DNA from: Nymphaea colorata
Lineage: Eukaryota; Streptophyta; Magnoliopsida; Nymphaeales; Nymphaeaceae
Assembly: GCF_008831285.2 (NCBI RefSeq)
Contig: NC_045138.2
Location: 32,149,934 to 32,213,933, forward strand
Direction: 5' to 3'
DNA length: 64,000 bases
Shown here: in pieces, positions 2,457-55,620 of the stretch
Position numbering within the stretch: the stretch's first letter is position 1
Layout of the letters: each line of letters starts with the position of its first letter
Position numbers and translations under genes: made by a program
Notes under the pieces: generated by a model
Databases searched by the model: none
Told to the model about the DNA's origin: nothing
The model's input: the letters and a program-made list of their open reading frames with translations, nothing else

Positions 2457-5400
2457 CTAACGGAGATAGGTAGACCCCTGGTAGGAAGGTAGAACAGAGG
2501 TGTAATCATAGCCACTGTAACTTGCTGAAGCAGACACATAAGGAGAGGCAGCAGCAGCACGAGAGGTGGGTACCTCTTCTGGCATGAATGGATAGGAACG
2601 TTGGGACATGGCTGCTGGACTCCGGCTTCCACCAGTGGTTGATTCTGGCAAATACGGGTAGTCGTAACCACTGTAAGCCGACACATAGGCCGCAGAAGGC
2701 TGATGGGCAGGTAAGCTCTGGTCCCGCCAAGTTGATGATGGGTATGCATTAGCATGCCTTCCAGCTTTGGCAGGCGGGAAGGAAGCAGAACCTACACCAC
2801 CACCACTCACCCGGCTCCTCTTGTTCTGCACTTTTGGGGGCCCACTGAACTTCTTCTTGTCTGCCTTGGCTTTCTCCAATTGAGTGACGCGCTTCTTCAG
2901 GCTTTCAGGTGAGAACTCGGCCTCTAGCTTGTGGTCTTCAATGCACTTGATCATGGCCTTGAGAGCATTTATCTCCGAAGAATCATCCTGACCAGCAGGA
3001 AGAAGATCCAATTGCATTAAAGGGCTATCAAGAATATTACCTCAGTTGAAATCCCAATCACATGAATGGACCGTTAGATCTTGAACTTGAAAAGAGGCAA
3101 CCAAAAAATAGCGTTGAAATAGACATTCAAGTCAATTAAGGGAACCAGCCTGGGATCCTAGAGGCTATAATGAACTTTTTACATTGACCAGCCAGAGAAG
3201 CCAACACTCCACCCTAGCAACTTGAGCTACTACAAGAGAATCTATGGAGTTCACTGGCCCACAATCCTTTTGTTAATACACCATACTCCAAACATGCTGG
3301 GCAGTGACTGAGAAACAACTACAGGATTTCCGCAACAACCACAACCCTGAGGCAGGAGTCTCGTGTCAGTTTTTATGTACAATTTGCATACACTTAGGTC
3401 AGCTGCACGTGATATTAAAGAAATTGCATAATGATGCACGTCTACAAAATGTTTATAGTTCTGGAGAAGGGTAATTCATAGGCATAGGCTCGGAACAATG
3501 CCAGATGTAGCTTCAGCAAGGAAGACAACCGAAGCCAAACTTGGAGATCATCCAAGAGGTGAGAAGTTAGAATTTGTTTTGGTACCTAGCAAGATTCCAA
3601 AGACCAACGCCAGTGTCTCATATTCACAAGGCATACAGTTGAAATATCAGCAAGTTAACCATGTAACTTGATCAAATATGTGCACTCGAATCTTCACAAC
3701 CACGTATATCATATGAGAGAGACAGGACTTCAGTATATTTTGTGTAGTGCATAAAAGCTACGTGATCAAAGCATGCTCAGGTGAGCCTGGCAGCCTATGC
3801 TTAGGGCAGCAGGGTGCTGCCTAAGCCAACTAGGCCCCATTGCTTAGGTCGGCCTAATTGTGCCTATGTTATCCCTGCCTGCGCACAGTTACTCATTTGT
3901 CTAAAGTTCCTTCCCCCTCTCCCATTTGTCTTCTAAAAATTTATTAAATTCAGAGATAAGCATCAGCGTGAAAGAGTGCAATCATAAACAACATGTACCA
4001 TAAGTGGCACAACAGCATGAAATCACTTTTTGGGATGCAGAAATGGGTCAAACCCATATTTTACAACAATACCAGTTTGCAGAGATGGCATGAAAGACTA
4101 TAACTTCTAAAGGGCTTCCCAATATCATGAATAGGAATGTCCAAAGTAATCACAAAGCAAACAAACTAAAGATGATATATTTGAAAAGACACATTTAAAA
4201 CTACAAAAATGAGAAAAAAAAAAAGAAGCTGAAAACAGAAACTTTGTCTTTTTTCCGAATCTGTATTGTCTTTTCCCATTTCCAAAGAAACTCCCATATC
4301 TTATTACGTTGACCTTTTCTTAGGCTTCCATATATTTGAACTTTTGAAGCAATCTTAGTTAAACTGTTCATTCCAACAACATATCAGAGGTTTGGCGGAA
4401 TATGGACAAGAAATATTATTATATTTTAATTTGGAAGTCAAGTGTATACATCCCACTGGACCCACTTTTGTTTCGTAATTGACTTGAGAGAGGGGGGAAA
4501 AAAAAAGAATGGGGCCTTCAGGTTTTTATTAAATAATGTGCAGGTAAAAGATCATCATGTTGTAGAGATTATCAAACTACAACGATCAATATGCCAAAAC
4601 GGAAACACAGTTGTGAGTCAATAAACAAGAGATTAAGCAGACTATACTTCAAAAAAAAACTTGGTCAGCCATGCCTTATGACTTGTAGACACAAATGCTT
4701 CTAAGTGCATAAGCATCCCAAAGGTTATTTTCAAATTTCAATTAAAACACAGTCAGAATGTTCCTCTTTTCTTATCTCAGGCTACACAAGCTAGGAAACC
4801 CAGAACAGCAGAAGACACAATTTTGTCCTGCTCTAAAAGGATAAGTAATAACCTGCAAAGACTGATGTTTTCCAAAATGCATTATAGAGCATAAAACCAT
4901 ATTTTAATAATAATATGAATTCCTCCACTTGAACATCATAACAGAAAAGCAGCTAAGAAACATGAAGACAGTAAAGGATCATGAAATGCTAATCATCAAA
5001 GACGGAAAGCCAAAAAAATCAAAAGGGATCATGAGCTAAATAAAACCAGTTTGATTACTTCTCAGCAATTTCAACAGAAACACATTTAAAAGTGATGTAC
5101 AAAATGAGAGAAACAAAAGGGGGAAAAAACCCTTAGGAGTTGCAAGCCAACTTACTGCAGAACCACCCTTTGCAGCCCCATTTGCATTTTTTCTTATGCT
5201 TTTGAGGTAGGCTTTGAGAAGTGGCACTGGGGCGAACTTACTAACTAAATCAGCCTCATGAATAAAATATATAGCATCAATCTCCTTGCCGTTGTTGACC
5301 AATTCTTCAATAATATCTGTCGAAATTAAAAACTGATCAGCTGCACATACAAATGTGCATAGATGTGTGCATGCATATATATATATATATACATATATAC

Positions 5401-6280
5401 ATGTGTGTATATATATATATATACACACACATGTATATATGTATATATATAATGTTATAGAATCACAGAAGCAACACCCAAGATTCCAAGCAGATTGCTT
5501 CCAGAAAGTTACATGCAAGAAAGAGCGGGTTCAATTTGACCAGGTAGAATTAACAACTTTAAGCAGTTGGTTTTGGAAACATTAAGTGAACCTTTTCCAA
5601 ACAAAGTTCTGGAGATCAGATGAATACTAAGCTAGCTAATCTATTGTTCAGTGGCCATGGAAAATTTCTCACCCATTAGACAAAAAATCTCAGCAGAAAA
5701 TGGCCCTTACTCCATTTATTGTAAACCAAAATAGCATCGTTAATGTATAAAAGCAAGAAGCATCACCAGAACAGAAATAGGAGGAGTAGCATCCTAAAGC
5801 TTTTGCAAAAAACAAAAACGTTATCAGAATGAGGACTAAATCAGAAAACAATGATTGTATTAAAGAAATTGGCAGGGAACAAAACACCTTTTTTAGGCCA
5901 GGAGTTTATTACAAAATACTAAGCTATATCTCAAAGGCTCACCTAAGCTTGCACCTAGGCTTGTCTAGACCCTTAGGCTTGACTAATTTCAAAGAATAGC
6001 AGTTCCTATACAACTTGCCACTTGAAAATGCTTTAAGCATCACCTAGGCGCCCAACAGCATATGTTATCTTTCTCTTAAAAACCCAAAGTTGCGTTCTTT
6101 TTTTCCTCATCACTTTTTTCTTCTAATTTTGCATTTTTTTCACTTTTTGTTATTGCAGGTGATTTGCGTTAAGAAAGTGTGTGAGTATATAGTTATACTT
6201 ATACATACAACTATAATTCATATACTCTTACATTTTGGTTATTTTTATGTTATTTTAGGTTCTTAACTCTGATATGTAAT

Positions 6281-6339
<59 letters not shown>

Positions 6340-9166
6340 TGATTGGTAAAACCAAACCACTAGGTCAGGGACAAAAACCAAACCCTTTAAAATAATATTT
6401 ATAGTTTTTTTTTTAATCTGTCACAAATATCGCGTCTTAATCGAAAAAGATGCGTTAAATACACCAAAAATAAGTCAGCCGCATAAAACAGCAATAAAAC
6501 GCTTTTTTTAAATGCCATAATGTTTACGTATTTTTTATGAATTTCTGATTCTTTTTTTTTACATAATTTTCAAGATATTTTAATTTTTTTAAAAATTCAC
6601 TGAGATTTTCCCGAGATATACAACATTGTTGTATTATACCTGAAAATTTTCTCGCCATATAATACCTGTACAGATTATATGTGACAAGATTCTAACCTTA
6701 CCAATATGATCTTAAGGATAGGTTAATGCAAAATATAAATTAAAATGATCATTTTTTGGGTTTAATAGTGTTTTAAATATATATAAGTTGATCATCTTCT
6801 TAATTCTTTTTCTTGTATAAAAGTCAGGTTCACAACAAACAATGTTAACATGAAAGCTGTGATTTTGTTGACGATCTATATTTCCTTTTTCTTTTCCTAA
6901 TAATATTCACACACACACACACACACACACACATAATCTTCTTTTTTTTTTCTTGTTCATTCAAAATTTTAAATTATGGTAGAAATCAGTTTCACAACAA
7001 ACAATGTTAACATAAAAGCTGTGATTTTATTGAGGATCTATGTTTCCTCTTTGTTTTCCTAATAATATTAGTAATTTTCGTTTTTGTTTTAAGATTTTCG
7101 TCTCAAAAATTATAAGTGAAGATTTTAATAGTTGCCATTCAGGAAATGGTAACATTTTACATACCACACACACACATAATCTTCTTTTTTTTTTCTTGTT
7201 CATTCAAAATTTTAAATTATGGTAGAAATCAGTTTCACAACAAACAATGTTAACATAAAAGCTGTGATTTTATTGAGGATCTATGTTTCCTCTTTGTTTT
7301 CCTAATAATATTAGTAATTTTCGTTTTTGTTTTAAGATTTTCGTCTCAAAAATTATAAGTGAAGATTTTAGTAGTTGCCATTCAGGAAATGGTAACATTT
7401 TACATACTTTACAAAATTAAAAGCATTGATATTTACTTGTAAGGTTTCTTCTACGCAATGTAACGTGTAAACATTAATTGTCCAACTTCATTAAATTTAA
7501 CCTTTCAGACTTACAACTATGATTATCATGTTATCAAATGTTTAATGTGTTTGTGTTATGGTGCATTTTTAATTGTTGTGTCGTTATCAGTTGATATTTA
7601 GGCTCTTCACTCAGAAATGCTTTGGTTTTGCTGTTAGTTTTAACAAATACTATTGCATTTTATCGATTCCCCTTTCTAGGGAAGGGATTGATTATGTGCC
7701 TAATCCTGCCTAGTCCCTTCTACGCTCAGATCCACGTAGGTTGTGTCTGCTGCTTTTGACAACAGTGTCTTGTATAACAATTAGGGTTGCATTTGATAAT
7801 TCTACTTTTCCCTTTATACTGCTTAAAAGTGCCTAGTCCAGCCTAGGCACACCTAGGCCCAGGTGGCCACTGATTGTCTCAGCTTCTCCTGGCACTTTTG
7901 ACAACAAAGATATTACGTCAAGATTCAATAAAAACTACAAAATAAGTAAGATAAAAAACAGAAGATAACAAGAAGATAATTTAAGAAATATAGATGTTAC
8001 GTTTAATTTGAAACTTTTAGTATATATGACTGTCAGGAATATTTATGCCCTGGAACAGGGGTCCAGTGGCATGAAATAAGAACCTTGGAGCTTTGCCCCA
8101 GATGACCGCAGCTGATATTGATTTAGAATAAAACGTCAAACTTCAAGGCATCCATCTTAACTAAACATCAAAACTGAATTTTTCAAGCACAGTGGAAGGG
8201 ATCAAATATATGCTTATTCCATATAAGTTCACTGAGACCTGCTTGAGGAAAGCCTCATTGATTGGAAAACTTTGATAATACACAAAGGAGAACGCATGCC
8301 AATTTTACCAAGTAATGAAAAAGCATACCTCCCATTTTCTCCTTGAGACCTAGAGTGATCGCGAGTTTTGGCATGTCCCTTCGAGAAGCAAATGCCACTA
8401 CAAGCTTCTTCAAGTAATCTATTTCAAGCTTATCTACCAGTTTGTAAGCAACTAAAAGTTGCAGAAACATTTGCACCTCAGCAGCGTTTGAAGCCAAACC
8501 ACCATCACTCCCATCGATCTTCTCCTTCCAAGATTGAGCCAGCGACCACGCTCGCTCCTTCACGCTAGTCGCAACTCCCCCTTCAGTGGACAAGGTCCTG
8601 AGCAGCAATCCGCACGCCCACCGCTGGTCGGACAGCCCAACTTTGTCCCCCCGCTTGAACACAAAATCTTCAAGCGCGTGCAGTATGAGGGATGCTGGAT
8701 CAACTGCGTCTCCAATAGCCGGCTGCAACTCCGCCCGGATCGTAGCCAGATCCTTCCTCCTCACTATCAGAAACCTCCAGAGGCTGCTCGCATCCATCTT
8801 ACGGCACAGGAAACGGAGGCTCTTCGCTACATCAGCGTCCTTGGGAACATCCCCAGAATGCTCCTCGATGTCTGACAGCGCCGCCTGCTTCAGCTTCTCG
8901 ACGCGGTCGGTAGCATCCGACTCTTTGGAAGGGAGTGACTCCTCCCTAGTGGCCAGAGATTCCAGGGTCTCCTTTGTGGTAGAGTCAAGGGTCCGAAGTT
9001 TCGAGTCCAGCGTTTCAGACTTCCGCTGCAGCGTCCTCTCGAGGGAGGAAATGTGATTGGAAAGGTCCTTCCAGAAATTGGTGAAGTTCGTGATCTTTAC
9101 CTGCTCCGTCTCGAGGTGGTCGATCGCCTTCTGGAAGGGATCGACATTAATGGCGACAGTGGCCAT
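2457..9166 (-). CDS. FRL4: FRIGIDA-like protein (FRL4 type), 3 exons, 509 aa
   Basis: The coding exons are 9166-8329, 5316-5156 and 2987-2457 (minus strand). The joins read EKMG|DIIEEL and KGGSA|DDSSEI, and phases close exactly (838+161+531 nt). The FRIGIDA family acts in the nucleus; FRIGIDA itself is a scaffold that raises FLC transcription and delays flowering, and FRL members are partners or relatives. Residues 25-100 are helical and coiled-coil-like. The conserved core follows, with FLCRKMD, LWRFL, RWACGLLLRTL and ASRRDMPKLAITLGLKEKMGD. Then comes IKCIEDHKLEAEFSPESLKKRVTQLEK, split here as IKCIEDHKLEAEF (about 345-357) and SPESLKKRVTQLEK, and a basic KRSR patch. The C-terminal tail is rich in Tyr, Ser and Ala. 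The start at 9166 gives the expected N-terminus (MATVAINVDPF). The FRL4 subtype is judged from memory of the family; the family itself is secure. Confidence 0.9.
2988..5155 (-). other. FRL intron 2
   Basis: This intron lies between codons for GGSA and DDSS, with donor GCA|GTAAGT and acceptor TGGTCAG|GAT. It is about 2.2 kb. It contains a CCTAAGC/GCCTA-rich patch near 3783-3880 that belongs to a repeat also seen in intron 1 and in HD16 intron 10. No other gene is visible inside. Confidence 0.8.
3783..3880. repeat. CCTAGGC-type dispersed repeat, copy 1
   Basis: A short stretch rich in GCCTA, TTAGGC and CCTAAGC words. Similar patches occur at 5930-6052, 7676-7895 and 29295-29480. They look like degenerate ends of one old transposon or MITE family. 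I cannot define exact termini or target duplications. Confidence 0.4.
5392..5441. repeat. AT/GT palindrome near splice acceptor
   Basis: Two arms that differ by one GT unit form a near-perfect inverted repeat: CATATATACATGTGTG on the left and its complement on the right, joined by an AT run. On the minus strand it lies about 75-125 nt upstream of FRL exon 2. Confidence 0.8.
5930..6052. repeat. CCTAGGC-type dispersed repeat, copy 2
   Basis: This patch contains CACCTAAGC, CACCTAGGC, CCCTTAGGC and CACCTAGGCGCCC words, as in the copies at 3783, 7676 and 29295. It lies in FRL intron 1. Confidence 0.45.
6284..6339. repeat. (AT)n(GA)n microsatellite
   Basis: An uninterrupted AT dinucleotide run passes directly into a GA run, inside FRL intron 1. 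Confidence 0.95.
6800..7408. repeat. Recent 243-bp tandem duplication with (CA)n junctions
   Basis: The segment at about 6929-7165 is repeated at about 7172-7408. I see only one substitution (AATAGTTGCC versus AGTAGTTGCC) besides a change in CA-repeat length. A more diverged partial third unit precedes it at about 6800-6908. CA tracts sit at the junctions, which suggests slippage or unequal exchange. It is within FRL intron 1. Confidence 0.85.
7676..7895. repeat. CCTAGGC-type dispersed repeat, copy 3
   Basis: This patch contains TGCCTAGTCC, CAGCCTAGGCAC and ACCTAGGCCC words, followed by CACTTTTGACAACAAAG. The same CCTAGGC vocabulary appears at 3783, 5930 and 29295. It may be one end of an old insertion in FRL intron 1. 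Confidence 0.45.
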
Positions 9167-9368
9167 TGGGGAACCTTAGGATCGTATTCTTCCCTCTCTC
9201 TGCCTATAAAGGAATAAGAATAAGACCAGAAACCTTAACTCCTTCCCAGAAACCCTAGCGCTGTGAGGAAATGAACCCCAAATCGGAATTCTGAGGAGCG
9301 CAACCGTTGAATGAAGCCCTAACCACGAACCAACGAGACACCAAGACGACGCCTGAACGAGGGACGCG

Positions 9369-49406: not shown

Positions 49407-52400
49407 TCACTGTATGACACAGCTGCAACCTCGACCATCATCATCTTCATCCTCCGATTCATTCATTTCACTGGTAGATCAAGAACAAAAAATTAGAAAT
49501 TGGGGGTGCGATCGGTATGTTGATAAACAGGTACAAATATGGTTACAAGATAATGCAAAGTTCTGCAACTCTTATGAGGCTAGGAAATGGATGGAATGGT
49601 TATCTTAGATATTTTGAAAGAAAAAGAATCAAAAGATCACATAAACCAGGTACCAGCATTCTCTATCACGAGATTATATTCTGAAAGTAGGAATTAAAGT
49701 GTGAGGAGTACAATGAGAAGTTGTTGGCCTTTGAGCCAGATGGTGCCTACTTCTAACAGTAAGTTGTCCATGGTAGACACCGAGATGGATTCCACACCAT
49801 GCTGCTTCATGTTAAGAATACTACATTTTAAGAGTCAGCACCCTTCCAATGATGTGTCTTATAATGCTCCAAACGAAAACAAAATTAGCTCGCTTGAAAA
49901 CCCAAAGAAATAGTCATAGAACAACAAAAAACTAAGATAATGAAGCAAGGAAAGCAGCATGCTTCTCCGCAACGACCATATCTGTCTTCTATAAGAAGCA
50001 AGGAGGCAACGCAACACTGAAGAATGACCATAATCTATATTCTACACATACAGAAGAACAAATAATACATCCTGAACCTTGACATGCTCTGACCGTGAAT
50101 TTTGTAACTAGTGCAAGCGGGGCTTGGTCAGAGGCTGTGAAGGAGGCAAAGCATGGTTCACATTGGAGAAGGTACTGCAAATTTATCATATATCTACCCA
50201 ACTTCCACACTGATACCAAAAGGATTATTAACAGTAATACTACACCAAAAAGTTCTAGCAACGCTGCACCTTAGAAAGCCATTTTTCACTTGAACATTAA
50301 CAGAACTGGTATACATAACTTCCAATATATAGAGAGCCATTCAATCTAGACCCATATCTCCACAGGGCCATAAGGATCATGGGATATTACCAGACCCACA
50401 AGGTGTCATGTTCTAGCACAGGATGTGTGCTGGAAATGGAAAACCCTTTACTGCTTCAACCACAACAGACCTAGTACTATATGAAGAAAAATTTCCAAGA
50501 CAGAAAAGCCAGAACAGCGGCGTATCAGAAAGATGGCAGGATCACATACATCAGGAAGAAAATAACTCTTCCATTAGAGAGAGCTGCATAGGATGTTCTG
50601 CTCTTCAACTTCTTGTACTTTAAATTGCTTTCTTGGGTTTTCAAATCTTTTGTGTTTCCCCTTCAAGAGATAAAAATACAGTTGTTCCTTGCAAAACTCA
50701 AACAACAATGGGACTTGCATTATGTAGTTTACAGTAAATCCTTACTTTATTCAATATTCAGCTGCTGGATATATTATCTCAGTGTCCACTGTCCAGTATA
50801 CAACTACCAGTTGCCTCAACTCTCCATTCTACATGAAAAACTACTAAATTTCAGAATTATCTAATAATAGCTTATAAGTAGTCATGCCTAAATTGTAATT
50901 TCAAGTTGAAAAAATGATGAAGTAAAGAGAAATGATCATGTCTTTCAATCAACTTTATTATTTTTGTAACTTTGCGCATCAATATGAACAGTTGATAAAC
51001 CATATTCGTTTACTCCAAGACACTCCAAGGTTTCAAATTTCTGCCCCCCTCTGTTCTTTTGCCTTTTCTGAGTCAGCTCACACCTTCCTATACCGTTCCT
51101 GATGATGTTGTAAACTTTCTATGGAAACAACTATAGACCTGCTTCTTCTCGTGTATCTGGTTTTAGTAAGCAATATCTCATCTCCCTATGCACTGCCTTT
51201 CTTGAACTTTCCTTGGGAAAGTTATGCTTGAATGATGTAAAAGTATGGCAGCCTTAGATGCTGGGAGCAAGAAGGAGGTTGGGGGCTTGGCTTCTTGTTA
51301 GAATGATGTAAAAGGGGGAAAAAAAATGAAAACAAACACGCAAACCTGAAAAAGTTGCATTCAATGCCGCACAATCTTTACCTAGATTACTGTTAAAGCA
51401 AATAGAAGAACAAAAATCTCACAGACTGAAAAAGGGAGCAAAAAATCAAGTTCAGAGTTTGGGAGCCTAGTACGCGAGAAAAGTAAAGAATTCTCTTAAT
51501 CTATTGTATTATAATATTATCTGTCATAAGGCACCCAAAAGTGATGGCAAGACAGGCCAGGCCAGGCCAGGGGTTAAAGTGGGGCAAAGAGCTACATAGC
51601 AGGCAAACAAAGACAACGGTACTTGCTTCTCAAGAGAAAAAAAGAAAGAACAGAACTTATCAAATTTATTTGACAGACTTCACACCCACACTAACATATC
51701 AATTATCATTGGTAAAAAGTATCTTGTTAACAGATAGTCAAGCATTGATGTACAACACATGCTTACCCATAGGTAATGCATGTTCTCTGCAGCTAGTTGA
51801 ATTCTCCCTTTACTAGGTTTATTTTAAATGAATTTTTAGATATCTGTTTTGAAGGCACTATCTGAACCACCATACAAAGTAACAGTTGTCATCATAACTA
51901 AGTCTTGTTCAGCTTTAGAGGTCACATTTTTTGTTTCTCCCCATTTATGGCGACAAGTTCTCCACTCTGCAATACATTATATCACCACCCAGGCACTTTC
52001 TCCATCCAAGCTTTCAAGACTTTTTTCTACTTTCTTAGTTTCTTCCAGTTTAACCATGTTCCGTCCTAAGCAACAGTAACAATGATCTTAGTTATTATTA
52101 TGACCTTTCATTATCCCTTTTAGATCTTCAAAAGTCTTCCTTCATAGATTTAGTTTGCATGATAAAATCCAGTAGTGGTGAATCTATAACCACTTGTAGC
52201 AGGGAACCTCTATAACTTTTTTTTTGTCCGTTAAAAGGAAAAAGCTCACATAAAAAACTCCCATTTAATTGGATTGAACAATGCAAATTTCTGAATATGT
52301 AAATGCCTGTGCACACTGTTTTCTGACCAGCTCGTGAGCTATAGGCTTAATTGACGTTAAAAGTAAACTGAAAACTTATAGAAGCTTTATTGTCTTCTTT

Positions 52401-54079
52401 TGTTCTGTTTCCTCCCTTAGAATATGGTAGAACCTTCTTGCTGCAAGTATTTACTGGAAAGGGTACCCCTTAAAGGTTATTGTGTCCAGTATTTTCATGA
52501 ATTGCATGTGAAAGAGAACCACATCAGACAGGAGATTGTGATCCAAATGTGAAGGGATGCCATTCTTGATTCACAGCTTGCCTCAAAACTGGACAAATTA
52601 CCATTTCTGCCTTTCATTCTCACATGATACACTACCATGACAGAGATGATCATTTACCATTTACAGTAAAAGGAGATTTTCCATCAGCGTGGCTATGATC
52701 TTCGGTTGTTCTCTTAAGAAAATGTACATAAGAGTCCCTAACCCGTCGTGTGCCAAGTAGGATCCCTTTGGTCGAATTGCAGTCTCTGCCGTAGAGCATG
52801 AAAAGTCAAAATTGAGTTCCCGAACAACAAGGGAGTACCTTTGCTCTTTTTCCACATTTCCGATTTCCCAATGGCCCAATGAGATATAAACCCTCAAGCA
52901 TCTGAACCCACAGTCTAATCAGCCTCAAGAACCTTGCCCAAATGCATTCATGTTCCGGTCACTTTCAGCCATTTGACGATCAAGGCAGTTCATCAATCAA
53001 ATCAGTAATAACTAACCGACTGGCAAACAAGCTACAAAATACATCTTGGCCGTCTGAAAAGAACACATAAAACTTCATTGAAATGCTGAAGCGCAAAAGT
53101 TCAAACGGCACCTCTTCCAAAATGAAGATCTAACAGTAGTTCTTCTAGTATCATACAGTAACAAATTACCCCAACTATAACCTCCAACTGGAATTATTCA
53201 ATCCAAGTTCAACCAACTTGTTCTTCAGCTAAGATCACTAAGATATTAGTAGAATTCAGATCCTAAGCTCGCCTTTTCCCACGTTCTATAACAAGAGGAA
53301 TTACTCTAAAAATCAAAACATGTACACATTCGCGACACCCGCATTTTGACTTAAAAGCGGGAGAAGAGATCGAAAATAAGAACATATCAAACGTAAAAAA
53401 TTAGTCAGGTCACCAAAAAATAGACACAATAAGAGCAAAACTCATCCCCGAAGAGACCAAAAATTGGGCACCTTGGTTCGAATTCCCTGATCTCGGTAAG
53501 ATCACGGCCCCAGCCGTCGGTCCACTGAACTTTCCTCTTCGCTGCAGTATCCAACACTGAGCTCTCGTCATTCTCCCCCTCAACTTCCTTAGCAGCAGGA
53601 CCACCACCATCACTCCCACCGGCCGATGGCTTCTTTAGGCTACTCTTTTGAAAAACCTTTACACCCAGTTCGTCAACCCCGTCGGCTGTTCCCGCGATCA
53701 CCCCGGACGGCGAGGTCGATGAGTACTCCTGCTGATGGACGACTGGCTCGACTTTGAGAGGCGAGGGTGGACCATCGAGGCCCGGTGGTGGTGGCCGGCC
53801 AAAGCAAAGAAAGGGCTTGCAAACCCGGCGGGTCTTCGCCCGGTGCTCGGCAGGAGCCAGCGGGTACTCGGCGGTGATCTCCTCCTGTGAAACCAATTGA
53901 TACTGGCGGTTCCAGGGAAGCACTCTCATGGGACTGTCGTCCGTCCAACCCCTCCTCCTCCTCCTCCTACGACGACGACGACCACCACCACCGATCCAGA
54001 AGAGAAGTAAGGCAAGGCCCTTGGAGTACCCGGAAGCTGACGAGGAGATGAACCCTCCTTCCACTGAGATTAGCATCAC
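49407..54079 (-). CDS. Plant protein of unknown function with RKVQWTD-type motif, 2 exons, 223 aa
   Basis: The coding exons are 54079-53472 and 49470-49407 on the minus strand, joined across a 4.0-kb intron. The donor is CCAAG|GTGCCC and the acceptor is CTACCAG|TGAAATG. The function is unknown. The N-terminus is MMLISVEGGFISS followed by a short hydrophobic stretch (KGLALLLFWIG, 20-30). Then come ten arginines (34-43), DDSPMRVLPWNRQYQLVSQEE and KPFLCFGR. The C-terminal motif is KRKVQWTDGWGRDLTEIREFEP. After splicing it continues SEMNESEDEDDDG and ends GCSCVIQ. Without the second exon the frame would read into intron sequence lacking the acidic tail. I recall related plant proteins with the same order of motifs. 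CVIQ fits a CaaX prenylation box. Membrane association by the hydrophobic patch or a lipid is possible. Confidence 0.82.
49471..53471 (-). other. Long intron of the RKVQWTD-type gene
   Basis: This 4.0-kb AT-rich intron contains no recognised transposon and no open frame with family features on either strand. The open frames at 49701-49913, 50423-50623, 51541-51816, 51849-52079 and 52661-52897 show nothing I recognise. Confidence 0.7.
53948..53990. repeat. Coding trinucleotide repeats (Gly4-Arg10)
   Basis: On the coding strand the tract reads (GGT)4(CGT)4(AGG)6, three adjacent trinucleotide runs giving Gly4 then Arg10. Such tracts readily change length between individuals. Confidence 0.9.
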
Positions 54080-54480
54080 CCTGCCTCACATCTGATGTTA
54101 AAACACACATACACACTCTCTCTCTCTGTAGGGATGCTACTCCCAGGAGGTTGCTTCTCTCCCTTTCTCTTGATTAGAGAGAGGATCCAGGAGGGGAAAG
54201 AAGAACGCCACCACCACCAGCAGTCCTGGACAACCAATATTTGAAATTTACAGACAGGAGAGGAGGAGAAAGAGAGAGAGAGGATCTCACCCTCTAGCTA
54301 TAGGCAACAGGGAAGAAGCCAATAGGGAGCAGAGCGGCCCCTCCTCTCTACCTCTCCCCTTCTACCAGGTGGGGTTGGCCAACCACATTAGCAGCGCCAT
54401 GGTGGCTGCAACTGAAAGAGCCATCCACGACTCTTCCTGCACGCCGCCCATCTCACGGCGACAACCCGAAAAAAACAAGG
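54080..54480 (-). promoter_or_regulatory. Probable 5' UTR of the RKVQWTD-type gene
   Basis: A long purine/pyrimidine-biased leader with CT/GA tracts near 54114-54128 and 54255-54285. It contains the 29-codon uORF. The transcription start is not determined, and a leader intron is possible. Confidence 0.45.
54362..54451 (-). CDS. 29-codon upstream ORF in the leader of the RKVQWTD-type gene
   Basis: The ATG is at 54451 and the stop TAG at 54364-54362, about 280 nt upstream of the main ATG on the same strand. The peptide starts MGGVQEESW and ends MWLANPTW, with a short hydrophobic centre rich in Met, Ala and Leu. Its composition is unlike random leader sequence, and it contains four Met and three Trp codons. 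Arabidopsis has conserved-peptide uORFs (I recall CPuORF12-14) ahead of similar-sized unknown proteins, but I cannot confirm that this belongs to that group. If it is translated, it probably lowers or conditions translation of the main frame. Confidence 0.5.
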   Translation of the reverse strand: MGGVQEESWMALSVAATMALLMWLANPTW

Positions 54481-55620
54481 ATATTATGTTAACATCAACC
54501 AAAAGGAAAAGACAGCAGAAAAAACATTAACAACAGATGAAGGGAGTGAGGGAGAAGGCAGGTCACTTCACCGATTTCCACATGATCATCACCCTCCAAG
54601 GAGACCGCCATTAATTGCATTCTCTGCACAAATAGAAGCCCAAGCTTCGTCAAATTAAGTTAAAATATGTTCTCTTTCTTCGAAATTTTACTACAAAAGC
54701 TACAAGTTTCAAGATTGAGAAATAAGTGTTTCCTCCTAAGATCAACAGTGGATGGAATTTGCTTTTTTCTTTTGCTTAATTCGACTGCTACCATCCAGCG
54801 GATTAACATAAATTAGAGAGACAAAGCACCAGAAAGTCAGAAACACGTCACGGAAACAACAAGGGCAGGTTGCTTTCACCAACTTCCACATTATCACAGC
54901 GGCAACGACGTGACCAAGTGCACGCTGTCATCATTTGCTGTCGGCGGAAATTGCCTGAAGGTCGAGAGAGAGCGCACTTATTTTATCACCAAAAGTTTGC
55001 GAAAAGAAGCTTCACCTTTTGGGGAACTAACATAAATATGTTCTTATTCATCAAATATTTCACTTTAATTTTTCAATATACTCCAACCTGCCTCAAGGAG
55101 TTTTATTTGAACTTCCAATGCCCGATACGGATTAGCATCGGTGTCTTTTTTAAACGTAAAAGATACTTTACAATATTGCTTTAAAAATGAAAGGTACATA
55201 GACCTATATTGGAGTAGCCGTACGGATCCATATTAGTGTCTCATAAAAAGTGATATTAGTAACACTAGGTAACTGGCATAGGGGGTTACATGTTCGAGTG
55301 CGTGTGTGGTTCCACATTAGTTGACCTCGTGCTAGAAAACCAGATTAGTTGACCTCGTGCTAGAAAAAAAAACTTCAAAATGTATCAGCATTTCTTATAT
55401 GAGTAGCTTGAAGAGCCGTTTAGGTTTTTGAGTACTTGGAAGACAAAATAATGGTCAGTGATGGGGTTGGCGTGATCAGTCACTATTTTGACTGTCAGCA
55501 ACTATATGTGTTGCAAAGGAAGGTCACGATGTACAAGTTAAAGTACAATAGGGCCGACACCCGAAAGCACTGAAAGTAGAGTTTGTATTATAAGAAACCC
55601 TATACCATAGGGAAACAAAG
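54481..55620. other. Intergenic DNA
   Basis: No gene is supported. A 24-bp direct repeat (ATTAGTTGACCTCGTGCTAG plus AAAA) occurs twice at about 55316-55368. The open frame at 54870-55184 has no recognisable features. Confidence 0.55.

What the first reader, a model, noticed from the sequence alone, without database searches (positions are those of the whole stretch)
54362..54451. Candidate regulatory peptide uORF ahead of an unknown plant gene
A complete 29-codon ORF with a Met/Trp-rich hydrophobic centre lies on the coding strand about 280 nt upstream of the 223-aa gene. Its composition is unlike the simple-sequence leader around it. I recall that Arabidopsis carries conserved-peptide uORFs upstream of unknown proteins of similar size. 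A conserved peptide here would imply translational control, possibly metabolite-sensing.
Basis: partly seen in the sequence, partly recalled or inferred. Interest (0 to 1): 0.72.

Follow-up and report, generated by a model that had tools for sequence, protein, structure and literature searches.

The report
Possible regulatory mini-gene before plant gene
A short reading frame sits ahead of a plant gene of unknown function and looks like the small upstream peptides by which plants throttle protein production, a known kind of control, but whether its peptide is conserved or even transcribed could not be tested here.

Summary
The ORF is real, on the minus strand: 54451 to 54362, 29 aa, 285 nt before the main start at 54076. 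From memory this is the family of Arabidopsis At1g70780/At1g23150, whose conserved-peptide uORF (group HG12) has been in print since 2007. No plant sequences were available, so neither membership nor peptide conservation was tested.

Length is ordinary: 71.5% of shuffled 500-nt leaders hold an ORF as long. Composition is not (the only one of 423 window ORFs both as Met/Trp-rich and as hydrophobic, though picked for that); its codon score ranks 2nd of 423, but synonymous codon choice alone only 27th. Four in-frame AUGs, two in strong context, lead into one C-terminus, MALLMWLANPTW. Against: HG12 peptides are 39-51 aa, the transcription start is unknown, and splice-like sites would allow a different uORF or an in-frame fusion to the main protein.

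Likely a translated, repressive uORF of a known kind, with a chance ORF as close second. Metabolite sensing has no support here.

The parts
54362..54451 (-). 29-codon uORF, MGGVQEESWMALSVAATMALLMWLANPTW*
   Evidence: ORF list; sequence; chance test; codon score
54362..54400 (-). C-terminal part of the uORF, MALLMWLANPTW*, from its third in-frame AUG (54400, context GCCACC|AUGG) to the stop; shared by starts at 54451, 54424 and 54400
   Evidence: inventory of upstream ATGs: in-frame ATGs at 54451, 54424, 54400, 54388
54077..54361 (-). 285-nt CT-rich spacer between uORF stop and main ATG; holds two further ATGs in weak context (54110, running out of frame into the main ORF; 54091, ATG-TGA)
53472..54076 (-). 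main gene, exon 1 (residues 1-201, MLISVEGGFISSSASGYSKGL...EFEP, plus two bases of codon 202)
49471..53471 (-). inferred GT-AG intron of 4001 nt
   Evidence: no transcript data; its donor scores poorly on my approximate scale (-1.7)
49407..49470 (-). main gene, inferred last exon (completes S202, then EMNESEDEDDDGRGCSCVIQ*), found with a pattern written from the recalled family ending
54364..54366 (-). possible splice donor overlapping the last sense codon and stop of the uORF (ACCTG|GTAGAAG, cut after 54366)
   Evidence: approximate score 1.6 against -1.7 for the inferred main-gene donor
54080..54082 (-). possible splice acceptor (GAGGCAG|GGTGATG, first exon base 54080) that would join the uORF in frame to the main protein (...NPTWVMLISVEGG...)
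   Evidence: score 2.1 against 1.8 for the inferred main-gene acceptor; frame of the fusion
54495..54620 (-). second candidate uORF, 41 aa, 3 nt behind the best-scoring acceptor-like site of 54000-55600 (first exon base 54623); its length falls in the 39-51 aa published for HG12
54979..54986 (-). TATA-like ATAAAATA followed by a CT-rich run, a possible promoter about 535 nt upstream of the uORF start
   Evidence: a consensus match, not evidence of transcription

Best explanation
The ORF is a translated upstream ORF in the leader of a gene that, by recalled features, belongs to the At1g70780/At1g23150 family. Scanning ribosomes start at one of its in-frame AUGs and finish through the same hydrophobic C-terminus, MALLMWLANPTW-stop. 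Most ribosomes are thereby kept from the main AUG; the main protein is made by those that leak past or reinitiate across the 285-nt spacer. If the peptide is conserved, it probably slows the ribosome at or near the uORF stop. Shown by sequence: the ORF, the AUG contexts, the spacer. Inferred: the spliced gene model, transcription through the ORF, translation, repression, stalling, family membership.
For: Four in-frame ATGs; two (54451, 54400) have a purine at -3 and G at +4, a third (54424) has G at +4 only, the fourth (54388) neither; 54400 is GCCACC|ATGG. A codon score trained on the main gene and a FRIGIDA-like exon ranks it 2 of 423 window ORFs and first of 22 GC-matched ones, and its own frame scores best of six on that stretch, 0.509, next best an antisense frame at 0.405. 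GC at third positions is 0.76, against 0.59 in the main ORF. The stretch is GC-rich (0.55-0.58) next to 0.30 in the 60 nt just upstream, though 0.52 follows beyond that. A last exon with the ending expected of the recalled family lies downstream in the right phase. For HG12, published mean Ka/Ks is 0.25-0.26 for the uORF, and ESUCA lists it as sequence-dependent.
Against: Conservation was not tested. Synonymous codon choice alone is unremarkable: 27th of 423, and 9 of 22 GC-matched ORFs (itself included) score as high. Length is expected by chance. 29 aa does not fit HG12's 39-51 aa. No transcript data: a start downstream of 54451 would remove the ORF's first AUG, one below 54362 the whole ORF. 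Predicted leader structure is not exceptional (z -1.29; 11 of 100 shuffles fold as well). The inferred main-gene donor scores poorly. Tran et al. 2008 found that the HG12 genes were not reciprocal best hits and likely paralogues.
Confidence: 0.42

Rival explanations
1. Chance ORF in 5' leader or promoter DNA, without peptide function. If transcribed it lowers translation only as any uORF with a good AUG would.
For: 71.5% of shuffled 500-nt leaders hold an ORF of 29 aa or more; the 900-nt leader holds four such ORFs against 2.3 in the mean shuffle. Synonymous codon choice is unremarkable. A transcription start downstream of it cannot be excluded.
Against: Met+Trp share matched by 0 of 880 shuffled ORFs; codon score 2nd of 423.
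Confidence: 0.33
2. The real conserved uORF of this gene is longer or different: either the stretch EESWMAL...NPTW joined by splicing to an upstream ATG exon, or the 41-aa ORF at 54620-54495.
For: HG12 uORFs are 39-51 aa. The 41-aa ORF lies 3 nt behind the best acceptor-like site of the region scored (54623, score 6.0) and its synonymous codon choice ranks 10th of 423, above the 29-aa ORF's 27th.
Against: The acceptor-like TGCAG|GAAGAG inside the 29-aa ORF scores -0.7. The 41-aa ORF's full codon score is lower, 19th of 423 against 2nd.
Confidence: 0.15
3. Alternative N-terminus: splicing from 54366 to 54080 removes the stop and fuses the ORF in frame to the main protein, adding a hydrophobic N-terminal segment.
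For: The junction is in frame and gives ...NPTWVMLISVEGG.... Both sites score above the inferred sites of the main intron.
Against: An in-frame join has a one-in-three chance. The would-be intron is CT-rich and near 50% GC, unlike typical plant introns (general knowledge). No transcripts. Scores are approximate.
Confidence: 0.08

Closest known systems
HG12 conserved-peptide uORF family (Arabidopsis At1g70780, At1g23150; rice LOC_Os02g21920), Hayden and Jorgensen 2007, PMC2075485
   Same: A short uORF ahead of a plant gene of unknown molecular function. The downstream protein matches the family as I recall it (not compared by any tool).
   Different: 29 aa here against 39-51 aa. The peptide alignment is in a figure that is not held, so the sequences were not compared.
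CPuORFs with conserved C-terminus that stall ribosomes at termination, e.g. HG17 CPuORF46/47 (Causier et al. 2022, PMC9305500; abstract and passages seen)
   Same: Possible mode of action: a C-terminal segment acting at or near the stop codon (inference here).
   Different: Different main gene; there supported by mutation of the CPuORF47 C-terminus and PARE data, not tested here. The term HG12 does not occur in that paper's main text.

Membership tests
HG12 CPuORF family | Main ORF homologous to At1g70780/At1g23150 | not testable with these tools
   No plant protein held. Pfam gives 0 families for the 223-aa reading (E up to 1) and for the 222-aa protein (E up to 0.1). Recognition is from memory; a last exon of the remembered kind was then found.
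HG12 CPuORF family | uORF peptide similar to the HG12 peptides, N- and C-termini conserved | not testable with these tools
   The alignment is in Figure 4 of PMC2075485 (legend seen); figures are not held. Full-text searches for peptide fragments found 0 papers.
HG12 CPuORF family | uORF length 39-51 aa in Arabidopsis and rice | tested here: not met
   29 aa if unspliced against Table 6 of PMC2075485. A spliced, longer form is not excluded. It is therefore not filed as an HG12 member.
Conserved-peptide uORF in general | Complete ORF upstream of, and not overlapping, the main ORF on the same strand | tested here: met
Conserved-peptide uORF in general | Amino-acid conservation across species, Ka/Ks below 1 | not testable with these tools
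   No relative confirmed; the genome search unanswered in 14 of 14 tries.
Conserved-peptide uORF in general | ORF lies in the transcript of the main gene | not testable with these tools
   No transcript data. A TATA-like site upstream at 54986 is only permissive.

The most novel reading that the evidence does not exclude
The uORF's last codon and stop double as a splice donor (TG|GTAG). Unspliced, the ORF ends in Trp-stop and represses the main gene. Spliced to 54080, the same peptide becomes an in-frame hydrophobic N-terminus of the main protein. One element would then switch between translational brake and alternative protein targeting.
Probability: 0.05. Interest if true: 0.6.

Novelty: new member of a known kind. 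Interest (0 to 1): 0.25.

Why it matters
If the peptide is conserved, it adds one more species to a known, little-studied class of plant translational control whose main protein has no known molecular function. Its practical use here is the corrected gene model and a short list of tests; it opens no new class of system.

Tried and rejected
The uORF peptide itself was not used as a query in any collection. Pfam: 0 families for the 223-aa reading and the 29-aa peptide and for the 222-aa protein. PDB sequences: 0 hits for exon 1 at E up to 0.1. Rfam at gathering threshold: 0 hits in the window. RNA structure as the working element: z -1.29, 11 of 100 shuffles fold as well, not pursued. A second copy of the gene or peptide in the window: none at E up to 10 beyond the gene's own two exons and the ORF itself. 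Paper searches by peptide fragments: 0 papers. Three papers looked up by id are not held: Ebina 2015, Hayashi 2017, and PMC6380273. The first two are among the references that ESUCA cites jointly for its list of regulatory groups, so the statement that HG12 acts in a sequence-dependent way rests on one sentence of PMC7106846. In one search a second, looser pattern (CxCx[IVL]) gave four matches above 50000 (52081, 53163, 51690, 50052); I dropped them because none is followed by a stop as the recalled ending requires, without checking splice sites. Other groups ahead of unknown proteins (HG4, 9, 17, 20, 22, 24) were set aside only because I recalled the protein as At1g70780-like; this is not a test. 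No comparison with the At1g70780 sequence was computed.

Full report
What is there. The stretch 54362-54451 is a complete ORF on the minus strand, ATG at 54451 and TAG ending at 54362, encoding MGGVQEESWMALSVAATMALLMWLANPTW. In the one plus-strand frame translated it has stops. The main ATG is at 54076 on the same strand, leaving a 285-nt spacer. The spacer is CT-rich and holds two more ATGs in weak contexts, one running out of frame into the main ORF (54110), one followed at once by a stop (54091).

I recognised the start (MLISVEGGFISSSASGYSKGL) and the stretch KRKVQWTDGWGRDLTEIREFEP, from memory, as the plant family of At1g70780/At1g23150, whose members I recall as ending in an acidic stretch followed by CSCVIQ or similar. 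The 223-aa ORF lacks that ending. I wrote a pattern for it and scanned the minus strand from 53470 to the end of the window in three frames; the full pattern (acidic stretch, CxC, stop) gave one match, at 49457, and a looser one gave four others that I dropped. The match lies behind an acceptor (CTACCAG) in the right phase for a donor at AAG|GTGCCC. The spliced gene is 53472-54076 plus 49407-49470, intron 4001 nt, 222 aa, ending EFEPSEMNESEDEDDDGRGCSCVIQ. There is no transcript evidence for it, its donor scores poorly on my approximate scale (-1.7), and the family name remains a recollection: Pfam has no family for the protein, and no plant proteins were available for comparison.

Is the ORF more than chance? 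By length, no: 71.5% of 1000 dinucleotide shuffles of the 500-nt leader hold an ORF of at least 29 aa, and 94.8% of shuffles of the 900-nt leader do; the real 900 nt hold four, against 2.3 in the mean shuffle. By composition it stands out: 0 of 880 shuffled ORFs of 29-60 aa (0 of 1914 in the 900-nt test) reach its Met+Trp share, and 1.1% (0.8%) its hydrophobic share. Of 423 actual ORFs of 25-60 aa in the window, itself included, 1 reaches the Met+Trp share, 11 the hydrophobic share, and only this one both. This is weaker than it sounds, since the ORF was chosen for the property. A codon score trained on the main gene and a FRIGIDA-like exon, with which the choice had nothing to do, puts it 2nd of 423 and first of 22 GC-matched ORFs. 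But the part of that score due to synonymous choice alone is unremarkable: 27th of 423, and 9 of the 22 GC-matched ORFs reach its value. The signal thus comes mostly from amino-acid content and GC, and is modest.

Start codons. Four ATGs lie in frame within the 29 codons: 54451 (GAG|ATGG) and 54400 (GCCACC|ATGG) have a purine at -3 and G at +4; 54424 (TGG|ATGG) has G at +4 only; 54388 (CTA|ATGT) has neither. Starts at the first three all end through MALLMWLANPTW. If the transcript includes the ORF, few scanning ribosomes should pass it unused (inference). That is the architecture of a repressive uORF, and is what I take it to be.

What is known. Hayden and Jorgensen 2007 (PMC2075485; section 5 part 1, sections 7 and 8, and passages seen) define group 12: At1g70780, At1g23150 and LOC_Os02g21920, molecular function unknown, process given as 'systemically primed response to pathogens'; uORF 39-51 aa with length conserved at N- and C-termini; mean pairwise Ka/Ks 0.25/0.26 for the uORF and 0.15/0.09 for the main ORF (yn00/codeml). 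Jorgensen and Dorantes-Acosta 2012 (PMC3426882, passages) list HG12 as unknown. Takahashi et al. 2020 (ESUCA, PMC7106846; passages and section 8) name HG12 among the known sequence-dependent regulatory CPuORFs. Tran et al. 2008 (PMC2527020; abstract, passages and part 1 of 7 of the text) report that the HG12 genes were not reciprocal best hits in their analysis and are likely paralogues. At1g23150 and its CPuORF29 stand in a list of nitrate-responsive genes (PMC3906980, passage), and At1g23150 among genes cold-responsive in the tcf1-1 mutant (PMC4579128, passages). Full-text searches for fragments of this peptide or protein found no paper.

Fit and misfit. But 29 aa is outside the published range, and the peptides could not be compared. 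Two ways out remain open. The 41-aa ORF at 54620-54495 sits 3 nt behind the best-scoring acceptor-like site of the 1.6 kb scored, has a fitting length, and ranks higher on synonymous choice (10th of 423) though lower on the full codon score (19th). Or the ORF is extended by splicing from upstream, though the acceptor-like site inside it scores poorly (-0.7). A third possibility is that the ORF is an alternative first exon: a donor-like site at its last codon and an acceptor-like site 4 nt before the main ATG join in frame.

Verdict. Most likely a translated, repressive uORF of a known kind; second, a chance ORF. Conservation, transcription and family membership are untested. The metabolite-sensing idea has no evidence of its own here. 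Interest is low to moderate.

Noticed in passing
window 2457-9175, minus strand: Three ORFs match successive parts of Pfam Frigida (PF07899; E 1.2e-46, 1.7e-15, 3.5e-15), together probably one FRIGIDA-like gene split by introns.
   Followed up: partly
window 54567-54588 and 54875-54896: A 22-nt direct repeat (86% identical) at 308 nt; another pair lies nearby at 371 nt (54663/55034, 78%). Possibly an old duplication upstream of the uORF.
   Followed up: no
window 55312-55367: Two adjacent 28-nt copies, 96% identical.
   Followed up: no
window 53951-53980, minus strand: The main protein carries a run of ten arginines from CGT and AGG triplet repeats near its N-terminus, which I do not recall from the family; possibly a repeat expansion.
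   Followed up: no
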